Origin: Aestuariimicrobium sp. p3-SID1156
Lineage (GTDB): Bacteria > Actinomycetota > Actinomycetes > Propionibacteriales > Propionibacteriaceae
Direction of reading: 5' to 3'
Length of the DNA stretch: 64,000 nt
NCBI RefSeq assembly: GCF_025144225.1
Contig: NZ_JALXXB010000001.1
Coordinates: 372,001-436,000, forward strand
The notes under the pieces are model-generated. The model was not told where the DNA came from. It saw only the letters and a list, made by a program, of their open reading frames with translations, and did not search any database. Shown here in pieces: positions 1,428-21,260 of this stretch. Positions within the stretch are counted from its first letter, which is position 1, and each line of letters starts with the position of its first letter. The position numbers were made by a program, and so were the translations under genes.

Positions 1428-2990
1428 ATGACCCTGCTTGACCTCGTCCGGTTACTCAGGAAGAACGCGTTGGTCCTGTTGATCGGTGGGCTCCTGGGTG
1501 GTGGTCTCGCGGCGGCGTGGACGTTGACCAGACCCACCGTCTTCCGAGCACAGGCGGTCGGTCTGGTGGTGGCCGGAGACTCCATGTCGGTGGCGAACGC
1601 AGCGCAGAGCGACCTCACGGCACAGGCAAGGGCGGGCGTGTATTCCAGCCTCATCACCACCCGCGCCGTGGCGGTGCGCGTCAATCAGGAGATGAAGACC
1701 GTGGGCGTCGCGCCAGGTAGTTACACGGCCTCTGTGCGGCCCGGCACGGGGTTCATCCAGATCTCTGCGGCCGCGCCCTCGGCTCGCTCAGCACAGGCGA
1801 CAGCTGACGCAGCCTTGAAGGCGCTGACAGCAGAGGCACTCCGGATGGAAACCTACGCCCAGGCGGAGCAGCGGGGAGCAGCTGCCAAGGATTTGTCGAA
1901 GCTGACGAGCATCCACATCCTCCCCTATGAGCAGGCTCTGGCGCCCGCAGCGCCAGAGCGCCCCGACCTCATCCGCAATCTGATTCTTGGGTTTCTCGCG
2001 GGGCTCTTGCTCGGTCTGACCTACGCGTTGGTCAAGCGTCAGCTCGACGTGAGGGTGCGCACGAAGAAGGATGTCGAGGAACTGACCGGGAGGCCAGTAC
2101 TGGGGCTCATTCCTGACTCCAAGGACTTCCGTAAGCAGCGTCAGGGGAAGGGTGTGATGGAAGTGGGCGGGGTTGCCGGCGAGGCGCTGCGGAAGCTTCG
2201 CACGAACCTGCGCTTCGTCCACGTCGACAACCCGCTCACCAGCATCGTCGTGTCCAGCGCCAATCCGGGCGAAGGCAAGTCCACGGTGGCCTCCAACATC
2301 GCTCGACTGCTGGCGCTTTCTGGGCAGCAAGTCACTGTTGTCGACTGCGATCTTCGGCGCCCCACGCAATCAACGATCTTCGGGGTGGACCCAGGGATCG
2401 GCCTTTCCCAGGTGCTGGTAGGCGATGTGAACCTGGAGGACGCGGTCGTCGAGACCGGGGTTTCTGGCCTTCGCCTCCTTCCCGCGGGTCGGATCCCGCC
2501 CAATCCCAGCGAGCTCCTCGGGTCCCAACGAATGGTTGACCTGCTCGAGGAGTTGCGCCGGACACAGATGGTGATCATTGACGCACCACCGATGCTGGCG
2601 GTCACGGACGCCTCTGTCCTGTCGGCGGTGACTGACGGAGTGCTCTTGGTGGCCGTGGGTGGTAGGACTGAGCGGGAACATGTCAGGGTCTGTGCTGAGC
2701 AACTCGGGATGGTTGGCGGAGCGCTCTTGGGGACTGTGCTGAACCGCCTCACGCGCGGTAGCTTCGGTGACGCGAGCTATGGCTACGGCTATGGGTACGG
2801 AAAGGGTTACGGCACGAAGGGTGGGTATTACGCTGCTGCAGCACCCGAGATCGGCATGGTGATCCCAGCTGCCATCGCTCAGCGGCCGTCAGGACGCACG
2901 GATCTTGCGGTCGATGACGAGCCGAGCGGCGGGTTTACCAGAGTGGCCGCACGGATGTCCCCTCGCGATGCTGACGGGCGCAGGCAGTGA
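1428..2990 (+). CDS. Wzz-type polysaccharide co-polymerase fused to bacterial tyrosine kinase (first copy)
   Basis: Controls polysaccharide chain length and export at the membrane, with an autophosphorylating cytoplasmic BY-kinase domain in the same 520-residue chain. Membrane segments lie at about residues 12-33 and 182-203, flanking a short extracytoplasmic Wzz part. The kinase follows with Walker A NPGEGKST (about 279-286), Walker A' VVDCDLRRP and Walker B VIIDAPP. A tyrosine-rich cluster, YGYGYGYGKGYG, near residue 450 is the likely autophosphorylation site. In Firmicutes these halves are usually split into two proteins; the fused form is usual in actinobacteria and proteobacteria. The start has GGAGGA nine bases upstream. 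The stop overlaps the next gene by four bases. A paralogue lies at 19725. Confidence 0.93.
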   Translation: MTLLDLVRLLRKNALVLLIGGLLGGGLAAAWTLTRPTVFRAQAVGLVVAGDSMSVANAAQSDLTAQARAGVYSSLITTRAVAVRVNQEMKTVGVAPGSYTASVRPGTGFIQISAAAPSARSAQATADAALKALTAEALRMETYAQAEQRGAAAKDLSKLTSIHILPYEQALAPAAPERPDLIRNLILGFLAGLLLGLTYALVKRQLDVRVRTKKDVEELTGRPVLGLIPDSKDFRKQRQGKGVMEVGGVAGEALRKLRTNLRFVHVDNPLTSIVVSSANPGEGKSTVASNIARLLALSGQQVTVVDCDLRRPTQSTIFGVDPGIGLSQVLVGDVNLEDAVVETGVSGLRLLPAGRIPPNPSELLGSQRMVDLLEELRRTQMVIIDAPPMLAVTDASVLSAVTDGVLLVAVGGRTEREHVRVCAEQLGMVGGALLGTVLNRLTRGSFGDASYGYGYGYGKGYGTKGGYYAAAAPEIGMVIPAAIAQRPSGRTDLAVDDEPSGGFTRVAARMSPRDADGRRQ

Positions 2991-4207
2991 GTTCCTCCGG
3001 CGTGGGCAATCCCACGCGTGTGGGGAGGCCGTCAGATGTCGACGGACAGCCGATGACCCGCGCGCTGGCCAGTCTGGTCGCGATGGACTTCCTGCTGGGA
3101 TTGGCTCTCACGTGGGATCGCTACCCACTGCCGGGGGTCAACCAACCGACAGGCATCCTCGTCATGGCCCTGGTGATCGCCCTGGGGGTCACCCGACGAC
3201 CGACGCGACGCGTCGCGGGCCTTGGGAGCATCGCCCTGGTGTACTCATTCATGGTGGCGTGGGCCATTGCTGTATCGGCGCTCAACGGGTTCCCATGGCA
3301 GATTCGCGCCACGAAGATGATGATCCTGCTTGCGTTCGGAGCAACGATCGCAGTGGGCCGGATCCATGCCCAGTCCCTGATCACCGGCTATCTGGTGGGG
3401 GCGCTCCTGAATGCTGGCTTGTTCTATGCTGGGTTTGCCCCGAACAATTACCCGCCCTACCTGACAGGTTTCATGACGGACAAGAATGTCGCAGGCCTGG
3501 TGTATGCGGTTCTGCTGATCGTGGGGCTGGTTCTTTTCACCCGCCGTCGCGGGCAGCTCATGCATGTCGCCGTATTCGCAGTTCTGCTCTTCCTGACGGG
3601 TTCGCGTACATCCATGGCGGCAGCAGCCGTCGCTCTTCTCTGGGTAGCTGTTCGAAACAAGTTCAGCGTGGTTCCGCGCCTGGTGCTGGCTGGCGGGATC
3701 ATCTGGTTCCTTCAGTTCGTCGAAGCCCGCTTTGCTCGAATCGGGGTCTTCGCCAACCGGGAGGGCACAGATTGGTTCAGGGAGCAGGTGGATCTCGCCA
3801 CGGAGGCAAAGTTGGCGCGATCCCCGTGGTGGGGGGATGGCCTCGGCACGGCATGGGTCGACGTGGGCAGCGCCGACTTCATGTTCTTCCACAACTCCTA
3901 TTCCGCCCTTCGCATCGAAGGAGGATGGGTCATGGTCGCCATCATGCTCTATCTCGTTGCGTACAAGGGGATGGGGCTGCTGTCCACTGCGCAGGTGCCG
4001 CGCAACCTCGCCCTTGTGGAGGGGGGTCTGCTGGTTCTCCTGGTGACGGCCTCCCGACTCGGAGAAGTGTTCTTCACGACACCAGCTCTCCTCCTCCTCG
4101 GCCTTGCCTGGGGCTGGAGATTCGGCGTGGAGGAGGTATCCGACACCAAGCCTTCACTGTCCGAACAGCGTGTCGACTTCTCGTCCCAGGGCTTCAGCAA
4201 AGCGTGA
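2987..4207 (+). CDS. O-antigen ligase/Wzy-like polysaccharide polymerase, multi-pass membrane protein
   Basis: A 406-residue protein with about ten hydrophobic segments, consistent with a Wzy polymerase or WaaL-type ligase that joins lipid-linked repeat units outside the membrane. The C-terminal half has the family-like pattern of a large loop (the stretch around WWGDGLGTAW and FFHNSYSALRIEGG, with a conserved His) between membrane segments, as in O-antigen ligase proteins. It starts with GTG overlapping the stop of the Wzz/BY-kinase gene (GTGA), so the two are probably translated together; an ATG at 3054 is an alternative start. The 3' end overlaps the convergent glycosyltransferase gene by 54 bases. 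Ligase and polymerase cannot be separated by sequence alone; the operon context favours polymerase. Confidence 0.8.
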   Translation: MSSSGVGNPTRVGRPSDVDGQPMTRALASLVAMDFLLGLALTWDRYPLPGVNQPTGILVMALVIALGVTRRPTRRVAGLGSIALVYSFMVAWAIAVSALNGFPWQIRATKMMILLAFGATIAVGRIHAQSLITGYLVGALLNAGLFYAGFAPNNYPPYLTGFMTDKNVAGLVYAVLLIVGLVLFTRRRGQLMHVAVFAVLLFLTGSRTSMAAAAVALLWVAVRNKFSVVPRLVLAGGIIWFLQFVEARFARIGVFANREGTDWFREQVDLATEAKLARSPWWGDGLGTAWVDVGSADFMFFHNSYSALRIEGGWVMVAIMLYLVAYKGMGLLSTAQVPRNLALVEGGLLVLLVTASRLGEVFFTTPALLLLGLAWGWRFGVEEVSDTKPSLSEQRVDFSSQGFSKA

Positions 4208-6198: not shown

Positions 6199-7226
6199 CA
6201 GATCTCCCTACTCAGCGCGGACATGAGCTTTGCGATCCTTCGTGCTCCACCTTCGGGGGAGTAGTGCTCCCTCCATCTGGCAAGGGATCGGGCCCTCAGA
6301 TCCGGAGCACCGGGATCCGTCGCCGCGCGCACGATCACGTCCGCCAGTTCATCGGGCCGGCCAGCTCGGGCCACCCACGGGTACTCGGCTCCAGCGACCT
6401 CGGGAAGAGCCCCGGCGTCGGAGATCACGAAGGGTACTTCGGCGGCCATGGCTTCTGCGACCACGAGCCCGAAGGACTCCGGCGCGATGGACGGTACGAC
6501 CAGCAGATCCACCGAGTTGAAGAAGTCCTCGCGGTTCACCCAACCCGGACGATCCACCAGGTGCCTTACCGGCGCCAGCGCCATTTCGACCTCGTGCTCG
6601 GCCTTGGGAGATACGAAGCGTGGCTCCCCTGCGAGTAGGAGCCGGTACATTTCTGGATGCCGCTGTTCGATTAGGGTGAGCGCTTGCGCCAGGGCGACCA
6701 CGCCCTTGTCCACCGAGGGACGCCCCAGGAATCCAAGCACGAACGGTTCTCCCGGCTGCCGAGTCCGCTGTGAGGAGGGCAGCGGTTCGGTCCAGTTCTC
6801 CAGTGCGGTGCTGCCCGGGACCTTGCCACTCAGGCTGTGTGATGGCACCAACACTCGCCGCGCCCTCCACGAGGCCAGGCGTGCGGCGAACACCTGTGAC
6901 CCGTGTGGTTCCTGATGCAGGTGTACGATGCGATTGCCGTGCCCAGCAGTGGCCAGCGCAGGACGCAAGCCGTTACACCACAGCAACCCGTGGCGTTGCC
7001 TGCTGTCCCAGCGTCGCAAACCCCGAAGGTAGTCGACGGTACCCCGTCCGTGGATGGTGGTAGCCGGAAGGCCCTCGCTCATTGCCGCCCGAGCCACCTC
7101 GTCGGGTTCCGCTGGGGTGACAACTGAGACCTCGTGCCCGCCCTCACGCAGGGCACGCGCGATTGCCAGCAGCATGACCTCGCCGCCGCCGATCTCGCCA
7201 TGGTTGGCAGCCAGGGTGACCTTCAT
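6198..7226 (-). CDS. GT4-family glycosyltransferase
   Basis: Predicted GT-B glycosyltransferase of 342 residues. The N terminus has the glycine-rich acceptor-side loop (NHGEIGGGEVMLLAIARAL), and the C-terminal domain has PESFGLVVAEAMAAEVPFV with the glutamate pair typical of GT4. The ATG at 7226 gives an ATGA overlap with the upstream stop and is preferred over a GTG two codons earlier. It is the fourth gene in the minus-strand operon that begins with the CMP-sugar synthetase at 11215. The protein is short for GT4 but has both Rossmann-like halves. Donor sugar cannot be predicted. Confidence 0.9.
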   Translation of the reverse strand: MKVTLAANHGEIGGGEVMLLAIARALREGGHEVSVVTPAEPDEVARAAMSEGLPATTIHGRGTVDYLRGLRRWDSRQRHGLLWCNGLRPALATAGHGNRIVHLHQEPHGSQVFAARLASWRARRVLVPSHSLSGKVPGSTALENWTEPLPSSQRTRQPGEPFVLGFLGRPSVDKGVVALAQALTLIEQRHPEMYRLLLAGEPRFVSPKAEHEVEMALAPVRHLVDRPGWVNREDFFNSVDLLVVPSIAPESFGLVVAEAMAAEVPFVISDAGALPEVAGAEYPWVARAGRPDELADVIVRAATDPGAPDLRARSLARWREHYSPEGGARRIAKLMSALSREI

Positions 7227-8266
7227 CGCCACACCTGCTCGTAGACGTCCACGATCCCTCGCTTCATCCCCGCGACGGTCGGCCAGTTCTCAGGCAAGGA
7301 GGGGCGCCGCCAGAGGTCCTTAGCCTGATTCATCATCAGGTTCGACACCCGCGTGGGGTCCCGGGCTTCCGTGAGGCAGTCCCGAGCGAGAAACTCCGGA
7401 TTTCCACCGACCGGTGTGGCCACCACGCCGAGCCCGTGCGCAGCTGCGTCCAGCAGCGTGTAGGAGGCGTTCTCCCACGCGGAGAGCTGTACCACCACGT
7501 CGTGCGATGCGAGAGCCTCGCTAGCGCAGACATGTCCGGGGAAGGTCACATTCTGCAGGCGGGCCGAGGCTGCCTGCTGCTCCAGGGGTTCCCGCAGGGG
7601 CCCGTCGCCAGCGATTGTGAGGCTTATCTGGGGAAGTGACGCCTGGACGTGTCCGAAGGCTTCCAGGACGAGATGGATGTTCTTCTCATGAGACAGCCTC
7701 GACAGGGAAAGGAACCGCGTCCCGGGTTCGCCCTTGCGCTCGACTGGGCGGTCGATGCCATTGGGGATCAGCACCACTCGGGCGCGTGGGCGCCACGTGG
7801 ACTGGACCAGTTCACACGTCGACCGGCTCACTCCGATGATGGCGTCCGTTCGCTGGCACCGGGCCCAGTGCAGGGCGCGTTTGAGGGTGGCCTTGACTGC
7901 ATTGGCGTTGTAGAGGGTCCGATCCGCTGCGATTCCATGCTCTGTGGAGACCAGCTTGGTTGGGAGACCGGCGCTGGCCGCTGCAGACAGGAGATCCGCG
8001 CGGGCGAGGTGGGAGTGCACCACCTGCGGCTTCACCTTGTTGATGGCTGCCCTGAGCCGCCGCACCGCCGTCCAGGTGCTGACGCCTTCCCCCATCTCGG
8101 TGGGCAGGACCGCTACACCCCGGTCGTGGAGCGCGTCCAACAGGGCCCCCTCGGGTGCCGCCACGACGACGTCCCAGCCCGGAAGCCCGCCTGTGGTGGC
8201 ATCCAGCACGTGCCTGGCCACCCCAGCCAGGTTACTGACCGGCGTGACCCACAGGGCGGTGCTCAT
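7223..8266 (-). CDS. GT4-family glycosyltransferase
   Basis: Predicted GT-B glycosyltransferase of 347 residues. The start is the ATG at 8266 (MSTALWVTPVSNLAGVARHV), one base after the stop of the NeuB-like gene; a longer in-frame extension upstream would run into that gene and has no ribosome site. The second domain carries RFLSLSRLSHEKNIHLVLEAF and the donor-binding stretch ENASYTLLDAAAHGLGVVA. In the latter the second acidic residue of the usual E-x7-E is Asp, which is tolerated in the family. It sits immediately after the nonulosonate genes, so it is one candidate to use their product, though GT4 enzymes normally use NDP-sugars rather than CMP-sugars. Confidence 0.88.
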   Translation of the reverse strand: MSTALWVTPVSNLAGVARHVLDATTGGLPGWDVVVAAPEGALLDALHDRGVAVLPTEMGEGVSTWTAVRRLRAAINKVKPQVVHSHLARADLLSAAASAGLPTKLVSTEHGIAADRTLYNANAVKATLKRALHWARCQRTDAIIGVSRSTCELVQSTWRPRARVVLIPNGIDRPVERKGEPGTRFLSLSRLSHEKNIHLVLEAFGHVQASLPQISLTIAGDGPLREPLEQQAASARLQNVTFPGHVCASEALASHDVVVQLSAWENASYTLLDAAAHGLGVVATPVGGNPEFLARDCLTEARDPTRVSNLMMNQAKDLWRRPSLPENWPTVAGMKRGIVDVYEQVWR

Positions 8267-8267
8267 G

Positions 8268-10511
8268 TCAGAACCACTTTTCCAAACGGTCAAGTGCTGT
8301 CCAGAAGCCCTGTCCGTTGTTGGTGTGGCCCATCCAGATCTCGGGGATGAACGAAACCCCGGGGGAGAGCTCCTCCAGCTGTCGGGCGAGCACTGGCCAG
8401 TCCACCTCACCCTCACCGATCTGCGGGCCCTCCCCGTCGACGCCCTCGGCGTCCACGATGTGCAGATGGTCGCTCAGCGGGGCGAGCTTCTCCACGTACT
8501 CGCTGAAGGGACGCTTGTGGAAGTTGGCCGCCAGCTTCGAGTGCGAGACATCGAAGGTGAGGCGCTGGCCGTACTGCTCACAGAACTCGACCGTGTCCTC
8601 CAGGCCCATGAACAGGTTGTGGTACTGCTGGCCACCCATCAACCAGGGGTAGGGCGGGAGGGTCTGGGCAGTGAGGCGCACGTCGGTGGTGTCGAGGCGC
8701 TCGATGGCCTGGGCGATGCGGGCATACATCGCGGGGCGCTCTGACGGGTCCACGAAGCCGTCAGCGGTGAAGCCGCCCATGGTAGCGATGAACACCGGCG
8801 GCGCGTCGAGGGTGAAGTACTTGGTCAGATTGCGGGTGATGTCGAGGCATTTCTGCGTCTCAGCGATCGACCGCTCCCAGACCGCGTCATCCGGGCTGGC
8901 CAGGTTGACGATGAAGTCGCCCGCATAGAGGTCGGGCAGGTGGACCGTGAAACCCATTGGCAGGCGCCCGTGGAAGATTTCGTCAATGTCCAGCTCCACG
9001 TCCTTGTAGGACATGTGGAACTCGATGAAGTCGGGGTTGGTGCCCTCGATGAGCTTGGCGAAGTCGTGGTAGCGCACCGGCAGGCCCCAGGGCCGACGGA
9101 AGTGGTAGTTCCGCCCCTTCGACACGGTGTCGGTGAGATCGCCGGGGTAGAAGAAGTCGCCGGCCTCGACGGTGCGCTGCGCGATGCGGCCCAGCAGCTC
9201 GTCCAGCTTGTTGGGTTGCAGGCCGCGTCCGGGGGACCTCACATCCACCATCCCGCGGGTGATGGTGGTGCCTGCCTCAATGCGCTGGGAGGCGACCAAG
9301 GACTTGGCCAGATTCACCCGATTCATCGATTCACCAGTGGAGACCACGCGGGCCTCCCCGTCTCCGAGGGATTCCTCGAGTTCGCGGATGCGGGCGACCA
9401 TGTCGCCGAATTCGTGGGGGAGCAGGGAGACCTTGTGGTCGTTGCCCTCCAGCGTCCGGTCGGTGGTGAAGTGCTTCTCGATGATGCGGGCGCCCAGGGC
9501 GACAGCCGCCAGCGGGATGTGGTAGCCCCGCTCGTGGCCGGAGTAACCGACTGGACCGCCAGAGATCTTCGCCAGCCGCGTCAGGTAGCGCAGGTTGATG
9601 TCCTTGAAGGGCGCCGGGTAGGTCGACTGGCAGTGCAGCATGGCGAATGGTGACCCGGAGTTTCGAAGCAGCTCGGCGGACTCCTTGATCTCCTCCTCGG
9701 TGCTCATGCCGGTGGACACGATCAGCGGCAGCCCCGTGGCAAACATGTCCTCGAGCAGGGCGTGGTTGGTCATGTCCGCGCTGGCGACCTTGAGACCGGG
9801 CACGCCATAGTCAGCGAGGACTCTCACACTTGGCGTGTCCCATGGCGTGCAGAGAATGTCCAGGTCGCGGACCTTGCAGTGATCGAAGACCTCCACCATC
9901 TGGTCGGCGTTGAGGGAATACTTGCCGAGCAGGTTGAGCGTGTACTGGGCGCCGAGGTCCTCGCCGCCGCTGGCTGCGCCGGACTGGCGGTAGAGCGCGT
10001 CCATGTCGCGGAGCTGGAACTTGACGATGTCGGCCCCAGCATCGGCAGCGAGATCGACCAGGTCCTTGGCGAAGGCCACGTCGCCCTGGTGGTTGTTCCC
10101 GATCTCGGCGATGATCAGGGTCGGATCCTCGGCCGAGACACGGTGGCGTCCGATCTGGAAGGCGCGGCGGTCGTTGGAGGCCACCGCCACGAATCGGCCG
10201 GAGGCGTCCACCAGCGGTACGTGGCTGATCGCGCCGGCGATCAGCTGGTCAATGTCCCCATGCGGAGCATCAATGGACGCTCGGACGCAACGGTTGTTGG
10301 CAGCCTTGCCCGCAGCAGACTCGAGCGAGGCATCAGGGGAGGCGAGTAGCCACCGCCGGATGTCACCGTCGGAGAGTGAGCCGACCAGGTGGCCGTGGTG
10401 GTCGGTGACGAATGCGATGCGGGACTTGTTCGTGTCGATCCTGCCAAGGGCGGTGCGGACGCTGTCGTCCTCAAGGATGGTGAAGGCTCCGATGTGGCGG
10501 TCGATGATCAT
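8268..10511 (-). CDS. neuB: NeuB-type nonulosonic acid synthase with N-terminal CBS pair, SAF domain and C-terminal TIM barrel
   Basis: A 747-residue multidomain enzyme. Residues 1-118 form a CBS pair (HLVGSLSDGDIRRWLL). Residues 129-385 are the NeuB synthase that condenses phosphoenolpyruvate with an acetamido-sugar: it has LIIAEIGNNHQGD, the metal ligand in MLHCQSTYPAP (H293), and GYSGHERG (H326) with EKHFTTDRTLEGNDHKVSL. Residues 395-465 are the SAF (antifreeze-like) domain (SPGRGLQPNKLDELLG). Residues 475-747 form a xylose-isomerase/AP-endonuclease-like TIM barrel with FTVHLPDLYA, TFDVSHSKLAANFH and FIPEIWMGH. Ordinary NeuB is about 340-350 residues, so this is roughly twice as long. The start overlaps the CMP-sugar synthetase stop (ATGA). 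Whether the product is Neu5Ac, legionaminic or another nine-carbon acid is not known; the barrel may supply or modify the substrate. Confidence 0.9.
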   Translation of the reverse strand: MIIDRHIGAFTILEDDSVRTALGRIDTNKSRIAFVTDHHGHLVGSLSDGDIRRWLLASPDASLESAAGKAANNRCVRASIDAPHGDIDQLIAGAISHVPLVDASGRFVAVASNDRRAFQIGRHRVSAEDPTLIIAEIGNNHQGDVAFAKDLVDLAADAGADIVKFQLRDMDALYRQSGAASGGEDLGAQYTLNLLGKYSLNADQMVEVFDHCKVRDLDILCTPWDTPSVRVLADYGVPGLKVASADMTNHALLEDMFATGLPLIVSTGMSTEEEIKESAELLRNSGSPFAMLHCQSTYPAPFKDINLRYLTRLAKISGGPVGYSGHERGYHIPLAAVALGARIIEKHFTTDRTLEGNDHKVSLLPHEFGDMVARIRELEESLGDGEARVVSTGESMNRVNLAKSLVASQRIEAGTTITRGMVDVRSPGRGLQPNKLDELLGRIAQRTVEAGDFFYPGDLTDTVSKGRNYHFRRPWGLPVRYHDFAKLIEGTNPDFIEFHMSYKDVELDIDEIFHGRLPMGFTVHLPDLYAGDFIVNLASPDDAVWERSIAETQKCLDITRNLTKYFTLDAPPVFIATMGGFTADGFVDPSERPAMYARIAQAIERLDTTDVRLTAQTLPPYPWLMGGQQYHNLFMGLEDTVEFCEQYGQRLTFDVSHSKLAANFHKRPFSEYVEKLAPLSDHLHIVDAEGVDGEGPQIGEGEVDWPVLARQLEELSPGVSFIPEIWMGHTNNGQGFWTALDRLEKWF

Positions 10512-11215
10512 GCGTTGTCCTTACGATCGCCCGTGGCTGCCTGCAGCCCGAGCAGGATCTGTTCGGCGGTCGCGAAATCGTGGCGGGTGTCGATGTCGGT
10601 TCCCTCGACATCGTTCATGACGAACAGGGCAACCTGGCCCCCGAGGCGGTTGTCGCACTGTTCGTAGATGTCCGTTCGGGTCAGGTAGACCGAGCCTGTC
10701 TCGCGATATCTAAGTTGCTCTGGGGTCATGTCCTGCCGGCGTGGGCGGTGTTCATAGTCATACTCGGCGGCGACGTGAGGGGCATTTCGCCAGATGAATG
10801 GCGGAGCGGACACCACGCCGACCATGGAATCGGCGCCTGCGCGGGTGAACTCGTCGACGGCGCGGGCCAGCGTCCCGGGGAGGCGAACGGGCGATGTGGC
10901 CTGAAGCAGCATCACCGTGTCTGGCCGTTCTGCCTGCTGGGTCAAGGTGTCGATGACATGTCGGACGACCGGTTCCGTGGCGGTCGCATCTTGTGCGAGC
11001 TCGACGGGTCGCTTGATGACCTCCGCGCCGTACAGAGTCGCAACCTCCGCGATCTCATCGTCCTCGGTCGAGACGATGACTCGTAGGTTGAGCACCTCGA
11101 GTGCTGACTCAATGGTCCAGGCAATGAGCGGTTTTCCTGCGATTTCCAACAGGTTCTTGCGCGGGATGCCCTTGGAACCACCCCTGGCCGGGATGACGGC
11201 GACGAGTCGGCTCAC
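10508..11215 (-). CDS. neuA: CMP-nonulosonate (N-acylneuraminate) cytidylyltransferase
   Basis: Activates the nine-carbon keto acid made by the neighbouring synthase to its CMP-sugar. The 235-residue protein has the nucleotide-binding signature VAVIPARGGSKGIPRKN near the N terminus, LLQATSPVR in the middle, YRETGSVYLTRTD, and the metal-binding region DVEGTDIDTRHDFATAEQIL near the C terminus; all are typical of NeuA/LegF/PseF enzymes. The GTG at 11215 is chosen because GGAGGG lies six bases upstream; an in-frame extension to 11260 has no such site. It is the first gene of the six-gene operon and overlaps the synthase gene by four bases. Which CMP-sugar is made is not decided by sequence. Confidence 0.93.
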   Translation of the reverse strand: MSRLVAVIPARGGSKGIPRKNLLEIAGKPLIAWTIESALEVLNLRVIVSTEDDEIAEVATLYGAEVIKRPVELAQDATATEPVVRHVIDTLTQQAERPDTVMLLQATSPVRLPGTLARAVDEFTRAGADSMVGVVSAPPFIWRNAPHVAAEYDYEHRPRRQDMTPEQLRYRETGSVYLTRTDIYEQCDNRLGGQVALFVMNDVEGTDIDTRHDFATAEQILLGLQAATGDRKDNA

Positions 11216-11404
11216 GGACGCCCTCCAATCGAGTCGCTGCCCCTTGCGCGACGGTGTCACTCTTTACACAATACCTTGCCGAAACCGGCGTGCCCCCCAT
11301 CAGCGGCCGATCGTTACGCTCCCACCAAGAGTGCTACTGCTGGGCCGGAAGGGTTTCGTTTCCCACGAGCCAGCGGACCCAACTGGCAACTATGTTGTCA
11401 GCGC
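11216..11404 (-). promoter_or_regulatory. Intergenic region carrying the promoter of the nonulosonate/glycosyltransferase operon
   Basis: This 189-bp gap separates neuA from the upstream same-strand gene. It contains the strong Shine-Dalgarno GGAGGG for the GTG at 11215. A TATTGT hexamer on the minus strand (11273-11268) is a possible -10 element with a poorly matching -35. Base composition is visibly more A+T-rich around 11255-11275 than in the flanking genes. No terminator hairpin was recognised. Confidence 0.35.
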
Positions 11405-12415
11405 TCACGGTTCAATCCACAGCTCACCAATGCGTCGCGCTGGCTCCCGGTCCGGCTCTCGATACCGCGTGGGCTCTGGATCGCCCCAACGGGAAAGTTC
11501 GTACCTGTCCCACAGCTCTTCCAGCCATCGCGGCGGCTGGGAATGGAAGACCCACGAGGGCACACCGCGAGCGGCTGCCTCCAACACCCCCGTGGAAAAG
11601 GCCGCAACGACCGGGCGGTCGATAGTGGTCAGCGCTCCGCCCTCTGCAAATTCCATGCCCATTCGCTTCCAGACACGGTGTTGAAACCTGGACAGCTTGT
11701 CCTCCTCTCGCGGATGAGGCCGGTACAGAGCGCGGGTCTCCCGCCAGAACTGTGTTGTCGATTGCGTCATGGAGAGCCGCGAGAGCTCCGCGCCGTGGAG
11801 CTGGCCGAGGTAGACGGGAGTCATGAACCGGCTGATGTGCTCTGCCGGGTTGGCAGCCGCAGCGTTGAGCATCGCCGAGCCGGTGACCTGGATATCCAGA
11901 TCCGATCTTCCTTCGCGAACAAAACTGGCATCGGCCTCCGACCACGCGAGGTAGCGAGCTCCGAAAGGTGGCGGGGGAGCGAAGGGGGTGAGGACCCCAT
12001 GTTGCACTACCCATTCGACCAAACCACGGGACGTGGCCAGTTCATGAGCCCACGCCCCGACCGCCAAGTGATCGCCAATGGAAGCGACGGAGGTCAACGC
12101 CGCCAGAGCGGCCTGCTGATCGGATTCCGGGAGGCGCCTCCACCCCTTGCCGGGAAGTGTTAGCTGCAAGTGCGCTGGCGTCGCGACAATGACATCCACG
12201 TCGCCGGCCTCAAGCGGTGCGAGGAGCGAATGGTGGTTCGTCGGGGACGTCGAGTCGCAGGCCACCAGCAGCCGAGGCCTAGGTCCCCTGCTCCAGAGGT
12301 GGAGTCGGAGTGTCTGCGGGGAGGGAGCGCTGAGGCGGTCCTTCAGGCCATGAAGGCGACGGCGGGACTGCTGCCACCGCTGCCAGGAATCCTTGTCGGT
12401 GAACGTCAGGCCCAC
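11405..12415 (-). CDS. Putative GT-B glycosyltransferase, unassigned family
   Basis: A 336-residue protein that I cannot place in a named family. It has two alternating alpha/beta halves. In the C-terminal half, RALYRPHPREEDKLSRF followed by IDRPVVAAFSTGVLEAAARG resembles the donor-binding layout of GT-B enzymes such as CDP-glycerol, sialyl- and polysialyltransferases: an R-PHP stretch, then a Ser-Thr-Gly turn before a helix. It starts at a GTG overlapping the upstream CgeB-like gene by ten bases, so the two are coupled. It lies immediately upstream of neuA, so a CMP-sugar transferase role is attractive but only inferred from position. Alternatives are a CDP-polyol phosphotransferase or an inactive GT-B protein. 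Confidence 0.6.
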   Translation of the reverse strand: MGLTFTDKDSWQRWQQSRRRLHGLKDRLSAPSPQTLRLHLWSRGPRPRLLVACDSTSPTNHHSLLAPLEAGDVDVIVATPAHLQLTLPGKGWRRLPESDQQAALAALTSVASIGDHLAVGAWAHELATSRGLVEWVVQHGVLTPFAPPPPFGARYLAWSEADASFVREGRSDLDIQVTGSAMLNAAAANPAEHISRFMTPVYLGQLHGAELSRLSMTQSTTQFWRETRALYRPHPREEDKLSRFQHRVWKRMGMEFAEGGALTTIDRPVVAAFSTGVLEAAARGVPSWVFHSQPPRWLEELWDRYELSRWGDPEPTRYREPDREPARRIGELWIEP

Positions 12416-13410
12416 AACTGTTCCACCTGTCGCGCGCGGTGGACGAAGGTGTGGTGGGCGAGGGTGCGCTGCTGTGCCCGACGGCGAATCGCGTCGCCCC
12501 ATCGATCGTCGCTGATGCATCGGCCTGAGAGGTCGATGAGTTCCTCAGGAGAGTCGTAAACGAGTACCTCACTCCCGGGTTCATACAAGTCAGAGACGTC
12601 AGCGCGGTCGATCAGCTGGACACCTCCAACCCCCGGCACCTCGAAGGTCTTCATGGTGAAGCCGTCCTGGTCAAAATGAATGTTGAGTGCCGCCGGCGCC
12701 CCAGCCGTCATCGCATAACCCTCTTCACGTGGCACGTCGCGCAAGGAGTGGACCTTGGGGCGAGACCATTCCCACGTGCGGGCGCGGTCGAAGGGGTGGT
12801 GGCTCCAGGAACGGCCCACTGCGGTGACGGGGACCCGCGCTTCGCACAGTGCTTCAACCAACTGCTGTCGGCGGGGGTATCGAGCACCGACGAACAGGAT
12901 GCCTGGAACGTAGCGGGCATGCCGGGGAGTCATCGAGTCATCAAACGCATTGTGAACGTGAATGCAGAGGCGTCCCTCTGTGACCAGTTGCTGAGTGTCC
13001 AGCGTGGAATAGCTGATCAACTGCGGGAATCGGTCCAACGATTCGGAAGTGTGACGTGTTCGCCGCACCTCGTCCCACAGCCACAGGATGGGTCGCGCCC
13101 CCACCCCCTGAACCGCATCAAAGACGGGGTCGGCGATATTGTCTCCCCGCAAGAAGAGTACGACGTCCGGTCTGGTCTCACGGATGAGGGTCGCGGTGGG
13201 TTCGTTGGCCTCGGCTCCTGCATGGGGGGCCCGCGCCAGCCGCGCCGGGAGCTCCACCCTCAGTTTGTGGCGGAATTTTGCACCGGCCGTATCCAGCCGG
13301 TCGAACTCATCAACCATGACCTGATAGCCGAGCCGGCGGAATCCGCGGGCGATCGACTGCCCGTACCCATGAAAGGTGGGGGTGACGAGAAGCAGCTTGA
13401 GATCTCTCAA
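12406..13410 (-). CDS. CgeB/GT1-like glycosyltransferase
   Basis: A 334-residue protein resembling CgeB-type proteins with a C-terminal glycosyl-transferase group 1 domain. It begins with LKLLLVTPTFHGYGQSIARG, has DVVLFLRGDNIADPVFDAVQG and ILWLWDEVRRTRHTSES in the first half, and ends with the CgeB-like NIHFDQDGFTMKTFEVPGVG, where an Arg/Glu-type acidic residue precedes a glycine turn. The start is TTG at 13410 with AGGA five bases upstream; a longer frame to 13590 would cross the divergent promoter. It is transcribed away from the GT4 gene at 13495 and coupled to the next gene. Its role is probably in decorating the cluster's polysaccharide. Confidence 0.72.
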   Translation of the reverse strand: MRDLKLLLVTPTFHGYGQSIARGFRRLGYQVMVDEFDRLDTAGAKFRHKLRVELPARLARAPHAGAEANEPTATLIRETRPDVVLFLRGDNIADPVFDAVQGVGARPILWLWDEVRRTRHTSESLDRFPQLISYSTLDTQQLVTEGRLCIHVHNAFDDSMTPRHARYVPGILFVGARYPRRQQLVEALCEARVPVTAVGRSWSHHPFDRARTWEWSRPKVHSLRDVPREEGYAMTAGAPAALNIHFDQDGFTMKTFEVPGVGGVQLIDRADVSDLYEPGSEVLVYDSPEELIDLSGRCISDDRWGDAIRRRAQQRTLAHHTFVHRARQVEQLWA

Positions 13411-13455
13411 TTGATTCCTAATCGTCGTCTCGCACTGAATTTGGGTCAGGCAGCC

Positions 13456-13485
13456 TTGCCTACGGGCCACATGCCGGGCTACTAA
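13456..13485 (+). promoter_or_regulatory. Candidate promoter giving a leaderless transcript
   Basis: TTGCCT (13456-13461) and TACTAA (13480-13485) are separated by 18 bases. The expected transcription start would fall at about 13492-13495, which is the ATG of the downstream gene, and no ribosome-binding sequence precedes that ATG. Leaderless mRNAs are common in actinobacteria. Confidence 0.45.
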
Positions 13486-13494
13486 GATCATGCC

Positions 13495-14604
13495 ATGACA
13501 CGCGTGGCGTTGGTGACTCCTTGGAACGTCAACGACCCCCGTGCTTGGTCTGGCGTCGTACAACCGATGACCCAGTCGCTGGCCCAACATTGCGAGCTAG
13601 TGCCCGTCAGTACTCAGGCGGTCCCGGATGCGCTGTTGGATCGGGCTCTAGCCCGTCTGCTGGATCGTCGTTGGGGGCGCAGTTATCTGGTCGGCCACGC
13701 ACTCGCCACCAGTCTCAAGCGCGGTGCTGCACTGGATCGACGACTCAAGCAGGTGAGTCCCGATGTCGTAGTGGCAGTGGCGGCCTCACAAGACATCGCC
13801 TTCTCCCGGTCGGGTATTCCCGTGATCCAGGTGTCCGACACCACCCTGGAAGCCATCTCCGGCTACTACGGCTTGTTCACCGATGTGCACAGCATCTCTC
13901 AATGGCAAGCCCAGGTCATCGCAGCGTTCTCCTCTCGCCGAGCTAGTCACACCCTGGCAGCGACGGACTGGGCTCGCGAGGCTCTGGTGCGCGACGACAA
14001 GATTCCGCCCCACGCTGTTTCAGTGGCCCCTTTTGGTCCAGCTATTCGCCCAGGTGGCAAGCTGGGTCCACGGCCCTCGAGGGGTCCGACAAAGGTGCTC
14101 TCGGTCGTCAGCGATTGGGATCGCAAGGGCGGGGATCGAGTGGTGAGGGTATTCGAGGCGCTGCGAGCTCGCAATGTGCCCTGCGAATTCACGATTGTGG
14201 GACGAACCCCCCAACTCCCTTCGGGGATCCATGCCCCTGGGGTCATTGGACGCGATGAGCTGGCCGCGATGTACAGGAGCCACGACGTGCTGCTTGAACT
14301 CGCCAGAAGCAACGCCGCCGGGGTGACGCTGACGGACGCGGCAGGCTTCGGACTCCCGGCGATCGCCACAAGGACGGGGGGAGTGCCGACCATCGTTGCC
14401 GATGGCGTGAGCGGAATACTGGTGGACAACACTGATGAGGCAGCGATCACGGCGGCCGTGGACGCGATTGCCCAAGGTCGCTCAGAGCTGAACCATCTGT
14501 CGCGCGGAGCCGAGGAGAGAGCGGCAACGGTCCTCAACTGGGACGCCTGGTCCGCGACGGCTCTTCGCGTGGCGGAAAGCGTGGTAGGAGGGCCTGACGC
14601 ATGA
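13495..14604 (+). CDS. GT4-family glycosyltransferase
   Basis: Predicted GT-B glycosyltransferase of 369 residues. It starts RVALVTPWNVNDPRAWSGVV. The linker to the second domain contains VLSVVSDWDRKGGDRVVRVF, the Arg/Lys region that binds the donor diphosphate, and ARSNAAGVTLTDAAGFGLPA, the position of the E-x7-E motif. Here the first acidic residue is replaced by Asn and the second by Asp, a variant that may affect activity. The ATG at 13495 has no Shine-Dalgarno and sits about ten bases after a -10-like hexamer, so translation may be leaderless. Its stop overlaps the next gene by four bases. Confidence 0.85.
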   Translation: MTRVALVTPWNVNDPRAWSGVVQPMTQSLAQHCELVPVSTQAVPDALLDRALARLLDRRWGRSYLVGHALATSLKRGAALDRRLKQVSPDVVVAVAASQDIAFSRSGIPVIQVSDTTLEAISGYYGLFTDVHSISQWQAQVIAAFSSRRASHTLAATDWAREALVRDDKIPPHAVSVAPFGPAIRPGGKLGPRPSRGPTKVLSVVSDWDRKGGDRVVRVFEALRARNVPCEFTIVGRTPQLPSGIHAPGVIGRDELAAMYRSHDVLLELARSNAAGVTLTDAAGFGLPAIATRTGGVPTIVADGVSGILVDNTDEAAITAAVDAIAQGRSELNHLSRGAEERAATVLNWDAWSATALRVAESVVGGPDA

Positions 14605-19724: not shown

Positions 19725-21260
19725 GTGACCCTGCTCGACATCGTGCGTCTTCTCCGTCGGCGTTGGATGACGCTCTTGCTTGGAGGGCTCATTGGGCTGG
19801 CGCTTGCCGCGGCCTACTCCTTCGTCCAACCCGTTGAGTACACCGCCTCCGCAAGCGGCTACATCGTGAGTGGCTCCTCCACGCGAACCATCAACACCGA
19901 CCCCACGAAGGCCCAAGGGATCGCCGATTCCTACCTTCCCCTGGCCAACACCAAGGCCGTGCGGCAACGCATTCAGAACCATCTCAAGAACGATCCCTCG
20001 GGGGCCCGAGAGGGCAGCATCCGTGCCTCGATGCTCCCGGGGACCAACGTCGTGTTGATCACTGCCGGTGGGGATACCCCGCAGAAGGCGCAGGCTGTTG
20101 CCAACGCAGGGCTACGTGCCTTCGCAGAAGAGGTCAATCGGCTGGAGAGTCTCAACCCGGCGGCAGCCTCGGTGGGGCCCGATGGAAAGCTGGAAGACAT
20201 CCCCACCACCGCGCGTCCCCGGATTGCCTTGGTGGGGTTCGAGCCGGCCGAGCTACCCAGCACCCCCTCGTCGCCCAACTGGCTGCGGAACCTTGCCGGT
20301 GGGCTGGTCGCCGGCCTCGCTCTTGCGCTCGTGTGGATCTACCTGCGCAAGGCCCTGGACGCCCGGGCCCGCGTCGGGGATGAGGTTGAGCAGCTGGCCG
20401 ATGCAAGCGTCCTGGGCGTCATCCCCCAGAGTCCCGAGCTGGGCAAGCAACGCAAGAAGGGCAAGGACGTCGCGGCCATGGGTGTGGCAGGCGAAGCCCT
20501 CCGATCGCTTCGCACCAACCTTCGCTTCGTGAAGGTCGACTCCCCCCCGAAGGCCATCGTGGTAACGAGTGCGAACCCGGGGGAGGGCAAGTCAACGGTG
20601 GCAGCCAACCTCGCGCGCGTCTTGGCCGAGTCCGGCCAGCAGACGGTCATCGTTGACGCGGACTTGCGGCGTCCCATGCAGGCAACCGCCTTTGCCCGCG
20701 ATGGGAAGGTTGGTCTCACTCAGCTCCTGGCGGGCCAGGTGCGCCTGGCCGATGCGCTCCAGGAGACTGATACGGCCAATCTCAAGCTGCTCCCCGCTGG
20801 TCGGATCCCCCCAAATCCCAGTGAGCTATTGGGGTCACGCCACATGAGCGAACTGCTCAAGACCCTGGGGCAGCGCTACACGGTGATCATCGACGCCCCG
20901 CCGGTGCTGCCGGTCACCGACGCTGGTCTGCTCACCGCCTCCAGCGACGGTGCGCTGCTGGTGGTGCGGGTGGGCAAGACGTACAAGGACCAGGTGTCGC
21001 TGGCCGCCAAGATCATCCGAAAGGCGGGCGGGGACCTGCTGGGCACGGTGATGAACGGCGCCTCCAAGCGCGAGCTCGGGGAAGTCATGTACGGTCACGG
21101 CGGCTACGGTTCCACCTCCTACGCTTACCAGGAAACCGAGCAGCCCAAGAGGCGCGGCAAGAGGGTTCGAGAAGAGCCGCTGGATGATGACACCAGGACG
21201 CATCCTGTCGTGACCGACGAGGACCCCATTCGGCCCAGCCGCTCACTGCCGGAGTTCTAG
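19725..21260 (+). CDS. Wzz-type polysaccharide co-polymerase fused to bacterial tyrosine kinase (second copy)
   Basis: A 511-residue paralogue of the protein at 1428, with the same plan: MTLLDIVRLLRRR at the N terminus, membrane segments at about residues 14-33 and 188-208, then the kinase with Walker A SANPGEGKSTVA, Walker A' IVDADLRRP, the shared stretch LLPAGRIPPNPSELLGS and Walker B VIIDAPP. Its tyrosine tail is shorter and more spread out (YGHGGYGSTSYAY) than the first copy's, and an extra acidic tail follows. The GTG start has GAGGTG upstream. It is preceded by its own TATAAT promoter. Two copies may give two chain lengths or two kinase signals; which acts on this polysaccharide cannot be told. 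Confidence 0.93.
   Translation: MTLLDIVRLLRRRWMTLLLGGLIGLALAAAYSFVQPVEYTASASGYIVSGSSTRTINTDPTKAQGIADSYLPLANTKAVRQRIQNHLKNDPSGAREGSIRASMLPGTNVVLITAGGDTPQKAQAVANAGLRAFAEEVNRLESLNPAAASVGPDGKLEDIPTTARPRIALVGFEPAELPSTPSSPNWLRNLAGGLVAGLALALVWIYLRKALDARARVGDEVEQLADASVLGVIPQSPELGKQRKKGKDVAAMGVAGEALRSLRTNLRFVKVDSPPKAIVVTSANPGEGKSTVAANLARVLAESGQQTVIVDADLRRPMQATAFARDGKVGLTQLLAGQVRLADALQETDTANLKLLPAGRIPPNPSELLGSRHMSELLKTLGQRYTVIIDAPPVLPVTDAGLLTASSDGALLVVRVGKTYKDQVSLAAKIIRKAGGDLLGTVMNGASKRELGEVMYGHGGYGSTSYAYQETEQPKRRGKRVREEPLDDDTRTHPVVTDEDPIRPSRSLPEF

What the first reader, a model, noticed from the sequence alone, without database searches (positions are those of the whole stretch)
8268..10511. NeuB synthase fused to CBS pair and C-terminal TIM-barrel domain
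Sequence shows one 747-residue frame with CBS (1-118), NeuB (129-385), SAF (395-465) and a xylose-isomerase-like barrel (475-747). Known NeuB/LegI/PseI enzymes are about 340-350 residues with NeuB plus SAF only. Inference: the CBS pair may sense a nucleotide and gate activity, and the barrel may isomerise or epimerise the acetamido-sugar substrate, replacing a separate epimerase. That would be a compact nonulosonate machine in an actinobacterium.
Basis: partly seen in the sequence, partly recalled or inferred. Interest (0 to 1): 0.82.

Follow-up and report, generated by a model that had tools for sequence, protein, structure and literature searches.

The report
Sugar-acid synthase fused to metal barrel
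This bacterial gene joins a nine-carbon sugar-acid synthase to a nucleotide-sensor-like front end and a second metal-binding barrel, a widespread but untested design in which the barrel most likely removes a phosphate from the synthase's product.

Summary
The 747-residue frame is real, on the minus strand (8268-10511): CBS, NeuB, SAF and a xylose-isomerase-like barrel. It is not rare: all 120 homologues listed carry NeuB+SAF+barrel, and reached many phyla. A NeuB fused to an "endonuclease-homologous" domain was reported in Leptospira in 2012, with a phosphatase guess.

New here:
(1) The place of NmNeuB Arg314 is Ser/Gly/Ala/Cys in 55 of 55 aligned fusions, Arg in 7 of 11 other synthases compared.
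(2) 19 actinobacterial fusion genomes hold one NeuB each and no NeuC, LegB or PseB over cut-off, so an acetamido acceptor is unlikely.
(3) Arg-less or SAF-less synthases without a barrel have a KdsC/Kdn-9-phosphatase-like HAD beside them in 56 of 58 loci; 0 of 69 barrel-bearing loci do.
(4) The CBS pair sits on an adjacent ORF in 13 loci, and two barrel metal positions co-vary with CBS.

Best reading: Kdn-type synthase plus 9-phosphatase. An isomerase making an acetamido acceptor is disfavoured, not excluded. Nothing was assayed.

The parts
8268..10511 (-). CBS-NeuB-SAF-barrel fusion, 747 aa
   Evidence: ORF and translation; Pfam; AlphaFold pLDDT 92.1
10158..10511 (-). CBS pair, residues 1-118
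   Evidence: Pfam CBS 10-56 over cut-off; 36-38% identical to the CBS of two HddA-like kinases; second repeat only from model secondary structure
9354..10127 (-). NeuB PEP-condensing barrel, about residues 129-386
   Evidence: Pfam; E136 K164 Q166 T222 K241 S244 S266 Y298 H326 H347 D358 identical in 55 of 55 rows of A2
9135..9305 (-). SAF (antifreeze-like) domain, residues 403-459
   Evidence: Pfam
9234..9236 (-). Ser426 codon, at the place of NmNeuB Arg314
   Evidence: aligned with 1xuu (R), 4ipi (A), 4ipj (K); S 50, G 3, A 1, C 1 of 55 fusions
8271..9095 (-). C-terminal xylose-isomerase-like / AP-endonuclease-2 barrel, residues 473-747
8340..8942 (-). span of the candidate metal-site residues H524, Q616, D654, H657, H684, E724
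   Evidence: hhalign with endonuclease IV; all but 616 identical in 55 of 55
10508..11260 (-). CMP-sugar (ulosonate) cytidylyltransferase, PseF-like but below its cut-off
   Evidence: Pfam CTP_transf_3; TIGR03584 134.6 of 205.7 bits
11405..12415 (-). conserved family without Pfam match; candidate CMP-ulosonate transferase
   Evidence: no Pfam family; QHG, YRPHPxE and FSxG motifs in 13 aligned members; role inferred from recalled sialyltransferase motifs
12406..13590 (-). glycosyltransferase (Glyco_trans_1_2), start uncertain
   Evidence: Pfam; a gene with the same Pfam family holds this place in actinobacterial kin
7223..8266 (-). GT4 glycosyltransferase, next gene of the operon
   Evidence: Pfam; same Pfam families at this place in L002, L003, L005; start at 8266 inferred from the frame

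Best explanation
The protein is a bifunctional ulosonate synthase of the Kdn type. Shown by sequence: a complete NeuB active site, a SAF domain lacking the Arg of NmNeuB R314, and a C-terminal barrel with a conserved metal-site-like residue set, related to endonuclease IV and ketose 3-epimerases. Inferred: the NeuB domain condenses PEP with a phosphorylated, non-acetamido aldose from central metabolism (most likely mannose 6-phosphate) to the ulosonate 9-phosphate; the fused barrel then removes the phosphate, doing the job of the separate HAD 9-phosphatase of barrel-less relatives; the neighbouring cytidylyltransferase makes the CMP-sugar, which goes into a surface polysaccharide. Inferred more weakly: the CBS pair tunes flux by binding a nucleotide.
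For: NeuB active-site residues invariant in 55 of 55. R314 place is S/G/A/C in 55 of 55 fusions; of 11 further synthases, 7 have R (PseI-, LegI- or NeuB-like by eye), three barrel-less Marinimicrobia ones G, one divergent fusion (L079) S; PseI 8h2c has R, human SAS 1wvo does not (weak alignments, E 0.006 and 0.27). 19 of 19 actinobacterial genomes (of 20 asked; L004 not held) carry exactly one NeuB; NeuC, LegB, PseB, KdsC over cut-off in 0 of 19 each. HAD beside the synthase: 28 of 30 barrel-less Marinimicrobia loci (two of them are L078 and L080 again), 26 of 26 SAF-less and 2 of 2 SPG-type Bacteroidota loci, 0 of 2 Arg-type there. Among the first 80 loci only L077, L078, L080 hit, six frames included, so 0 of 69 barrel-bearing ones. 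Of 13 such HADs scored, 3 pass the curated Kdn-9-phosphatase model (L118 242.4, L119 210.6, L077 186.2; cut-off 180), L118 and L119 pairing with KSPG synthases like the fusions; it is the best HAD model for 12 of 13. Barrel aligns with endonuclease IV keeping the H69, D179, H182, H216, E261 places. Earlier phosphatase proposal for a Leptospira fusion.
Against: At the endonuclease IV places H109/E145 the window has Thr/Gln, so the full site is not kept. Fold search ranks ketose 3-epimerases first and hhalign barely separates the two (Prob 96.1 against 95.3). I know of no phosphomonoesterase of this fold (recalled). A missing HAD also fits an unphosphorylated acceptor that needs no phosphatase. 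Many Gram-negative fusion genomes have a KdsC-like HAD elsewhere that could serve. The HAD counts come from related genomes, not independent events; flanks differ (10 kb where contigs allow, against 1.5 kb). 10 of 13 scored HADs fall under the Kdn-9-phosphatase cut-off. ManA exceeds its cut-off in only 14 of 19 genomes. G001 and G010 hold PseB-like proteins of 285-287 bits (cut-off 407.75).
Confidence: 0.5

Rival explanations
1. The barrel is a sugar isomerase or epimerase that makes the acceptor for the NeuB domain (first reader's idea, recast without acetamido groups: for example fructose 6-phosphate to mannose 6-phosphate).
Against: The Glu of the epimerase-like neighbour family aligns with Gln616, which is Gln in 48 of 55 members; 14 of 19 genomes already have ManA; does not explain the HAD-barrel complementarity.
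Confidence: 0.2
2. The barrel no longer catalyses anything in the CBS-bearing lineage; it and the CBS pair form a regulatory or scaffold unit for the synthase.
For: The H577/E616 pair of 7 CBS-less members is replaced by N/T/S plus Q in the 48 others, 44 of which have their own CBS.
Against: Ten further polar barrel residues (R480, D483, E497, H499, H524, D654, H657, H684, E694, E724) are invariant in the 55 rows, unlike a degenerate site.
Confidence: 0.15
3. The acceptor is a heptose 7-phosphate, giving a ten-carbon ulosonate, at least in the clade where CBS sits on the HddA-like kinase.
For: CBS-bearing ORF directly upstream in 13 loci, a GHMP kinase in the five examined (L044, L047, L051, L054, L059); GmhB-, HddC-, HddA- and GmhA-like genes around the synthase in L047; GmhA-like matches of 137-212 bits in 9 of 9 such genomes searched, one over the 209.45 cut-off.
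Against: 18 of 19 actinobacterial fusion genomes lack a full-length GmhA match and only G006 of the 19 has a strong HddA match, 158.5 bits (the 600-bit cut-off is not met even by the two kinases of the clade that were scored), so it is unlikely to be the window's route; co-location may only reflect one polysaccharide.
Confidence: 0.08

Closest known systems
Leptospira interrogans NulO synthase with C-terminal endonuclease-homologous domain (YP_002104 / NP_711794), PMC3438082 (2012)
   Same: NeuB-type synthase with a C-terminal domain described as homologous to endonucleases; phosphatase role proposed by inference
   Different: No CBS mentioned in that paper (term search); proposed for Neu5Ac; its sequence was not compared here
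Neisseria meningitidis NeuB (1xuu) and Campylobacter PseI (8h2c)
   Different: About 350 aa without CBS or barrel; carry the Arg that is Ser426 here
Kdn-9-P synthase plus separate HAD 9-phosphatase (Bacteroides / Prymnesium type; PMC6200933, passages seen)
   Same: Proposed acceptor Man-6-P; the uncharacterised barrel-less relatives examined here lack the Arg (Gly/Ser, or no SAF)
   Different: Phosphatase is a separate HAD enzyme; no barrel in the relatives examined. The characterised enzymes themselves were not aligned here
Endonuclease IV and D-tagatose 3-epimerase-like barrels
   Same: Barrel fold and several metal-ligand positions
   Different: Not fused to NeuB; window has Thr/Gln at endonuclease IV H109/E145 and Gln at the epimerase Glu

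Membership tests
NulO synthase (NeuB/LegI/PseI) | NeuB + SAF domains over Pfam cut-off | tested here: met
   258.9 and 39.8 bits
NulO synthase (NeuB/LegI/PseI) | curated equivalog score (TIGR03569 NeuB, TIGR03586 PseI) | tested here: not met
   302.5 of 399.65 and 225.4 of 340.25 bits
NulO synthase (NeuB/LegI/PseI) | SAF Arg equal to NmNeuB R314 (role in N-acetyl binding recalled) | tested here: not met
   S426; 0 of 55 fusions have R
Kdn-9-P synthase | condenses PEP with Man-6-P | not testable with these tools
   needs an assay
Kdn-9-P synthase | dedicated HAD 9-phosphatase next to it | tested here: not met
   0 of 69 barrel-bearing loci; 56 of 58 Arg-less or SAF-less barrel-less ones have it
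AP_endonuc_2 (xylose isomerase-like) fold | Pfam cut-off and fold | tested here: met
Endonuclease IV | nine metal ligands (list recalled) | tested here: not met
   H69, D179, H182, H216, E261 places kept; E145 is Q, H109 is T; D229/H231 unresolved
Ketose 3-epimerase | metal-binding catalytic Glu (role recalled) | tested here: not met
   Q616 aligns with the Glu of the L-ribulose-5-P-3-epimerase-like cluster
CBS-domain protein | CBS over Pfam cut-off | tested here: met
   32.5 over 24 bits, first repeat only
CBS-domain protein | binds an adenosine or other nucleotide | not testable with these tools
   no ligand data
Leptospira NeuB-endonuclease-like fusion | same barrel family by sequence | not tested
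   paper section read, sequence not fetched

The most novel reading that the evidence does not exclude
A one-chain Kdn factory: the xylose-isomerase-like barrel is a new kind of sugar-acid 9-phosphatase that stands in for the HAD enzyme in many phyla, and when the lineage gained a CBS pair the barrel swapped its His/Glu metal ligands for Asn/Thr/Ser plus Gln, changing its metal site together with its regulation.
Probability: 0.35. Interest if true: 0.75.

Novelty: new variant of a known kind. Interest (0 to 1): 0.52.

Why it matters
If true, Kdn-type sugar acids would be made by a large, overlooked set of bacteria with a single enzyme, the usual annotation as N-acetylneuraminate synthase family protein would mislead, and a barrel fold known for isomerases and DNA repair would have a new phosphatase job. 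It also shows a CBS pair placed on the synthase in some lineages and on an adjacent sugar kinase in others.

Tried and rejected
Heptose acceptor for the window: thought unlikely for Actinobacteria, kept only for the HddA clade. Assigning the barrel by fold alone: inconclusive; 3-epimerases and endonuclease IV lie within about 2 Z. The whole-chain fold search listed mostly rows for the NeuB part, so the barrel was modelled alone. NCBIfam on six barrels gave weak, mixed hits (epimerases, CbiR and others; none for L047). A NeuB-domain tree of 66 rows had long branches, so deep joins are unsure and I draw no origin from it. Literature (open-licence PMC library): searches returned 0 papers; only the Leptospira paper; two searches gave listings; (bradyrhizose) led nowhere. 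Papers seen: PMC3438082 section 7 whole and passages; PMC8053191 and PMC6200933 passages only; PMC7371886 term search without a hit; all others listings only. Rows dropped or misfiled: one search left 7 of 80 loci as broken/other (my ORF calls lost or split the frame; in L041 the frame itself is broken), and its 200-base rule put L055 among those without adjacent CBS although a CBS ORF overlaps its start; L076 is a barrel-less partial locus without HAD and is not in the 58, nor is L077; some contigs are short, so flanks are shorter than 10 kb; the two Marinimicrobia misses are L105 (short contig) and L116; L084 and L085 were dropped from the endonuclease IV set (picked wrong frames). The 55 rows of A2 and 48 of A4 are my selection. 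In Bacteroidota only the 30 best loci were read (242 of 395 genomes matched); in Marinimicrobia the 30 best (54 of 149 matched).

Full report

How common. A protein search gave 7719 proteins at E<=1e-20 among the 7998 candidates scored; all 120 rows shown carry NeuB, SAF and AP_endonuc_2 at 61-90% identity. Close named kin are Tessaracoccus, Arachnia and other Propionibacteriaceae. By my ORF calls, of 80 loci 44 have CBS-NeuB-barrel in one frame, 13 have NeuB-barrel with CBS on the frame directly upstream, 12 NeuB-barrel without adjacent CBS (L055 among them wrongly), 4 NeuB without barrel, 7 broken or lost frames.

Precedent. PMC3438082 (2012; section 7 read) noted a Leptospira NulO synthase with a unique C-terminal domain homologous to endonucleases and proposed, by inference, that it removes the phosphate of a 9-phosphate sugar. 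'CBS' does not occur in that text. I found no other paper on the fusion (open-licence PMC papers only).

Neighbourhood. The order Glyco_trans_1_2 gene - unnamed conserved gene - cytidylyltransferase - fusion is contiguous in 10 of the mapped loci (L002-L006, L008, L015, L028, L039, L074) and matches the window; a GT4-type gene follows in the three scanned (L002, L003, L005), as in the window. The unnamed gene has no Pfam match but conserved QHG, YRPHPxE and FSxG motifs in 13 sequences, reminiscent (recalled) of bacterial sialyltransferases. Among the window genes scanned around the fusion there is no dehydratase, aminotransferase or hydrolysing epimerase.

Acceptor. I asked for 20 actinobacterial genomes holding the fusion; 19 are held. 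NeuB occurs once in each (19 of 19). NeuC, LegB and PseB models are exceeded in 0 of 19 each. Weaker matches are found in 11, 19 and 19 of 19, expected for related epimerases and dehydratases; the strongest are PseB-like proteins of 285-287 bits in G001 and G010 (cut-off 407.75). The residue at NmNeuB R314 (R in 1xuu, A in 4ipi, K in 4ipj) is Ser in the window and S 50, G 3, A 1, C 1 in 55 fusions. Of 11 further synthases, 7 have R, three barrel-less Marinimicrobia ones have G, and the divergent fusion of L079 has S. PseI 8h2c has R and human sialic acid synthase 1wvo does not, in weak alignments. Together this argues against an acetamido acceptor made by a known route. Mannose 6-phosphate is the obvious candidate (Kdn route, passages of PMC6200933), though ManA exceeds its cut-off in only 14 of 19 genomes.

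Barrel and phosphatase. The barrel-less relatives L077, L078 and L080 are followed by a KdsC-like HAD. I then drew 149 genomes of that phylum (54 matched): the 30 best synthases all have G and no barrel, and 28 of 30 have the HAD beside them. In 395 Bacteroidota genomes (242 matched; the best 30 loci read), 26 of 26 SAF-less synthases and 2 of 2 cytidylyltransferase-NeuB-SAF fusions with KSPG (L118, L119) have it, and 0 of 2 Arg-type synthases have it. Of 13 such HADs scored, the curated Kdn-9-phosphatase model is the best HAD model for 12, and 3 pass its 180-bit cut-off: L118 242.4, L119 210.6, L077 186.2; the rest score 79-169, and that of L135, in a cytidylyltransferase-HAD frame, fits KdsC better. 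L118 and L119 matter most: their synthases share the KSPG motif of the fusions. Of the first 80 loci only L077, L078 and L080 contain the HAD, also in a six-frame check at E<=0.01, so 0 of 69 barrel-bearing loci. Fisher's test on 56 of 58 against 0 of 69 gives p about 3e-34, but the loci are related, so this overstates the evidence. KdsC and Kdn-9-phosphatase models find nothing above 32 bits in the 19 actinobacterial genomes; many Gram-negative fusion genomes do have a KdsC-like gene elsewhere.

CBS placement. In 13 loci a homologous CBS sits on the ORF directly upstream; the two compared are 36-38% identical to the window's, and five examined are GHMP kinases, two of them scored as HddA-like at 235-251 bits against a 600-bit cut-off. 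In L047 GmhB-, HddC- and GmhA-like genes lie beside it. This suggests a link between heptose and ulosonate routes there, but 18 of 19 actinobacterial genomes lack a full-length GmhA match, so it probably does not apply to the window.

Verdict. A real, widespread, previously glimpsed fusion. The synthase assignment is firm by sequence; a non-acetamido acceptor is likely (about 0.75); a phosphatase role of the barrel is the best of several readings (about 0.5); CBS sensing is inference. Nothing was assayed.

Noticed in passing
window 11405-12415 (-): Conserved protein family without Pfam match, found beside the cytidylyltransferase in many of the actinobacterial loci mapped; motifs QHG, YRPHPxE and FSxG suggest a CMP-ulosonate transferase.
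   Followed up: partly
L047:9962-11389, L054:9977-11359, L044, L051, L059 and other loci: A homologous CBS pair is fused to a GHMP kinase (HddA-like where scored) directly upstream of a CBS-less NeuB-barrel gene.
   Followed up: partly
L118 and L119 (unnamed Bacteroidota genomes): Cytidylyltransferase-NeuB-SAF fusions of about 600 aa with a separate HAD next to them that passes the Kdn-9-phosphatase model.
   Followed up: partly
L135:208-1482 (+): A frame joining a PseF-like cytidylyltransferase to a KdsC-like HAD, next to a SAF-less NeuB.
   Followed up: no
L041:10001-12244: The fusion gene is frame-broken in Ornithinimicrobium sp. INDO-MA30-4.
   Followed up: no
window 7223-8416 (-): The mechanical start at 8416 overlaps the synthase; the likely start is the ATG at 8266, just past its stop.
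   Followed up: no
window 1428-2990 and 19725-21260 (+): Two chain-length/tyrosine-kinase-like genes bracket a cluster of eleven glycosyltransferase-like genes, with a Wzy_C-like gene at 2987-4207 below its Pfam cut-off; looks like an exopolysaccharide locus.
   Followed up: no
L049:15866-16693 and 10 other loci: A second, separate AP_endonuc_2 barrel (L-ribulose-5-P-3-epimerase-like in L049) lies near the HddA-type clusters.
   Followed up: partly
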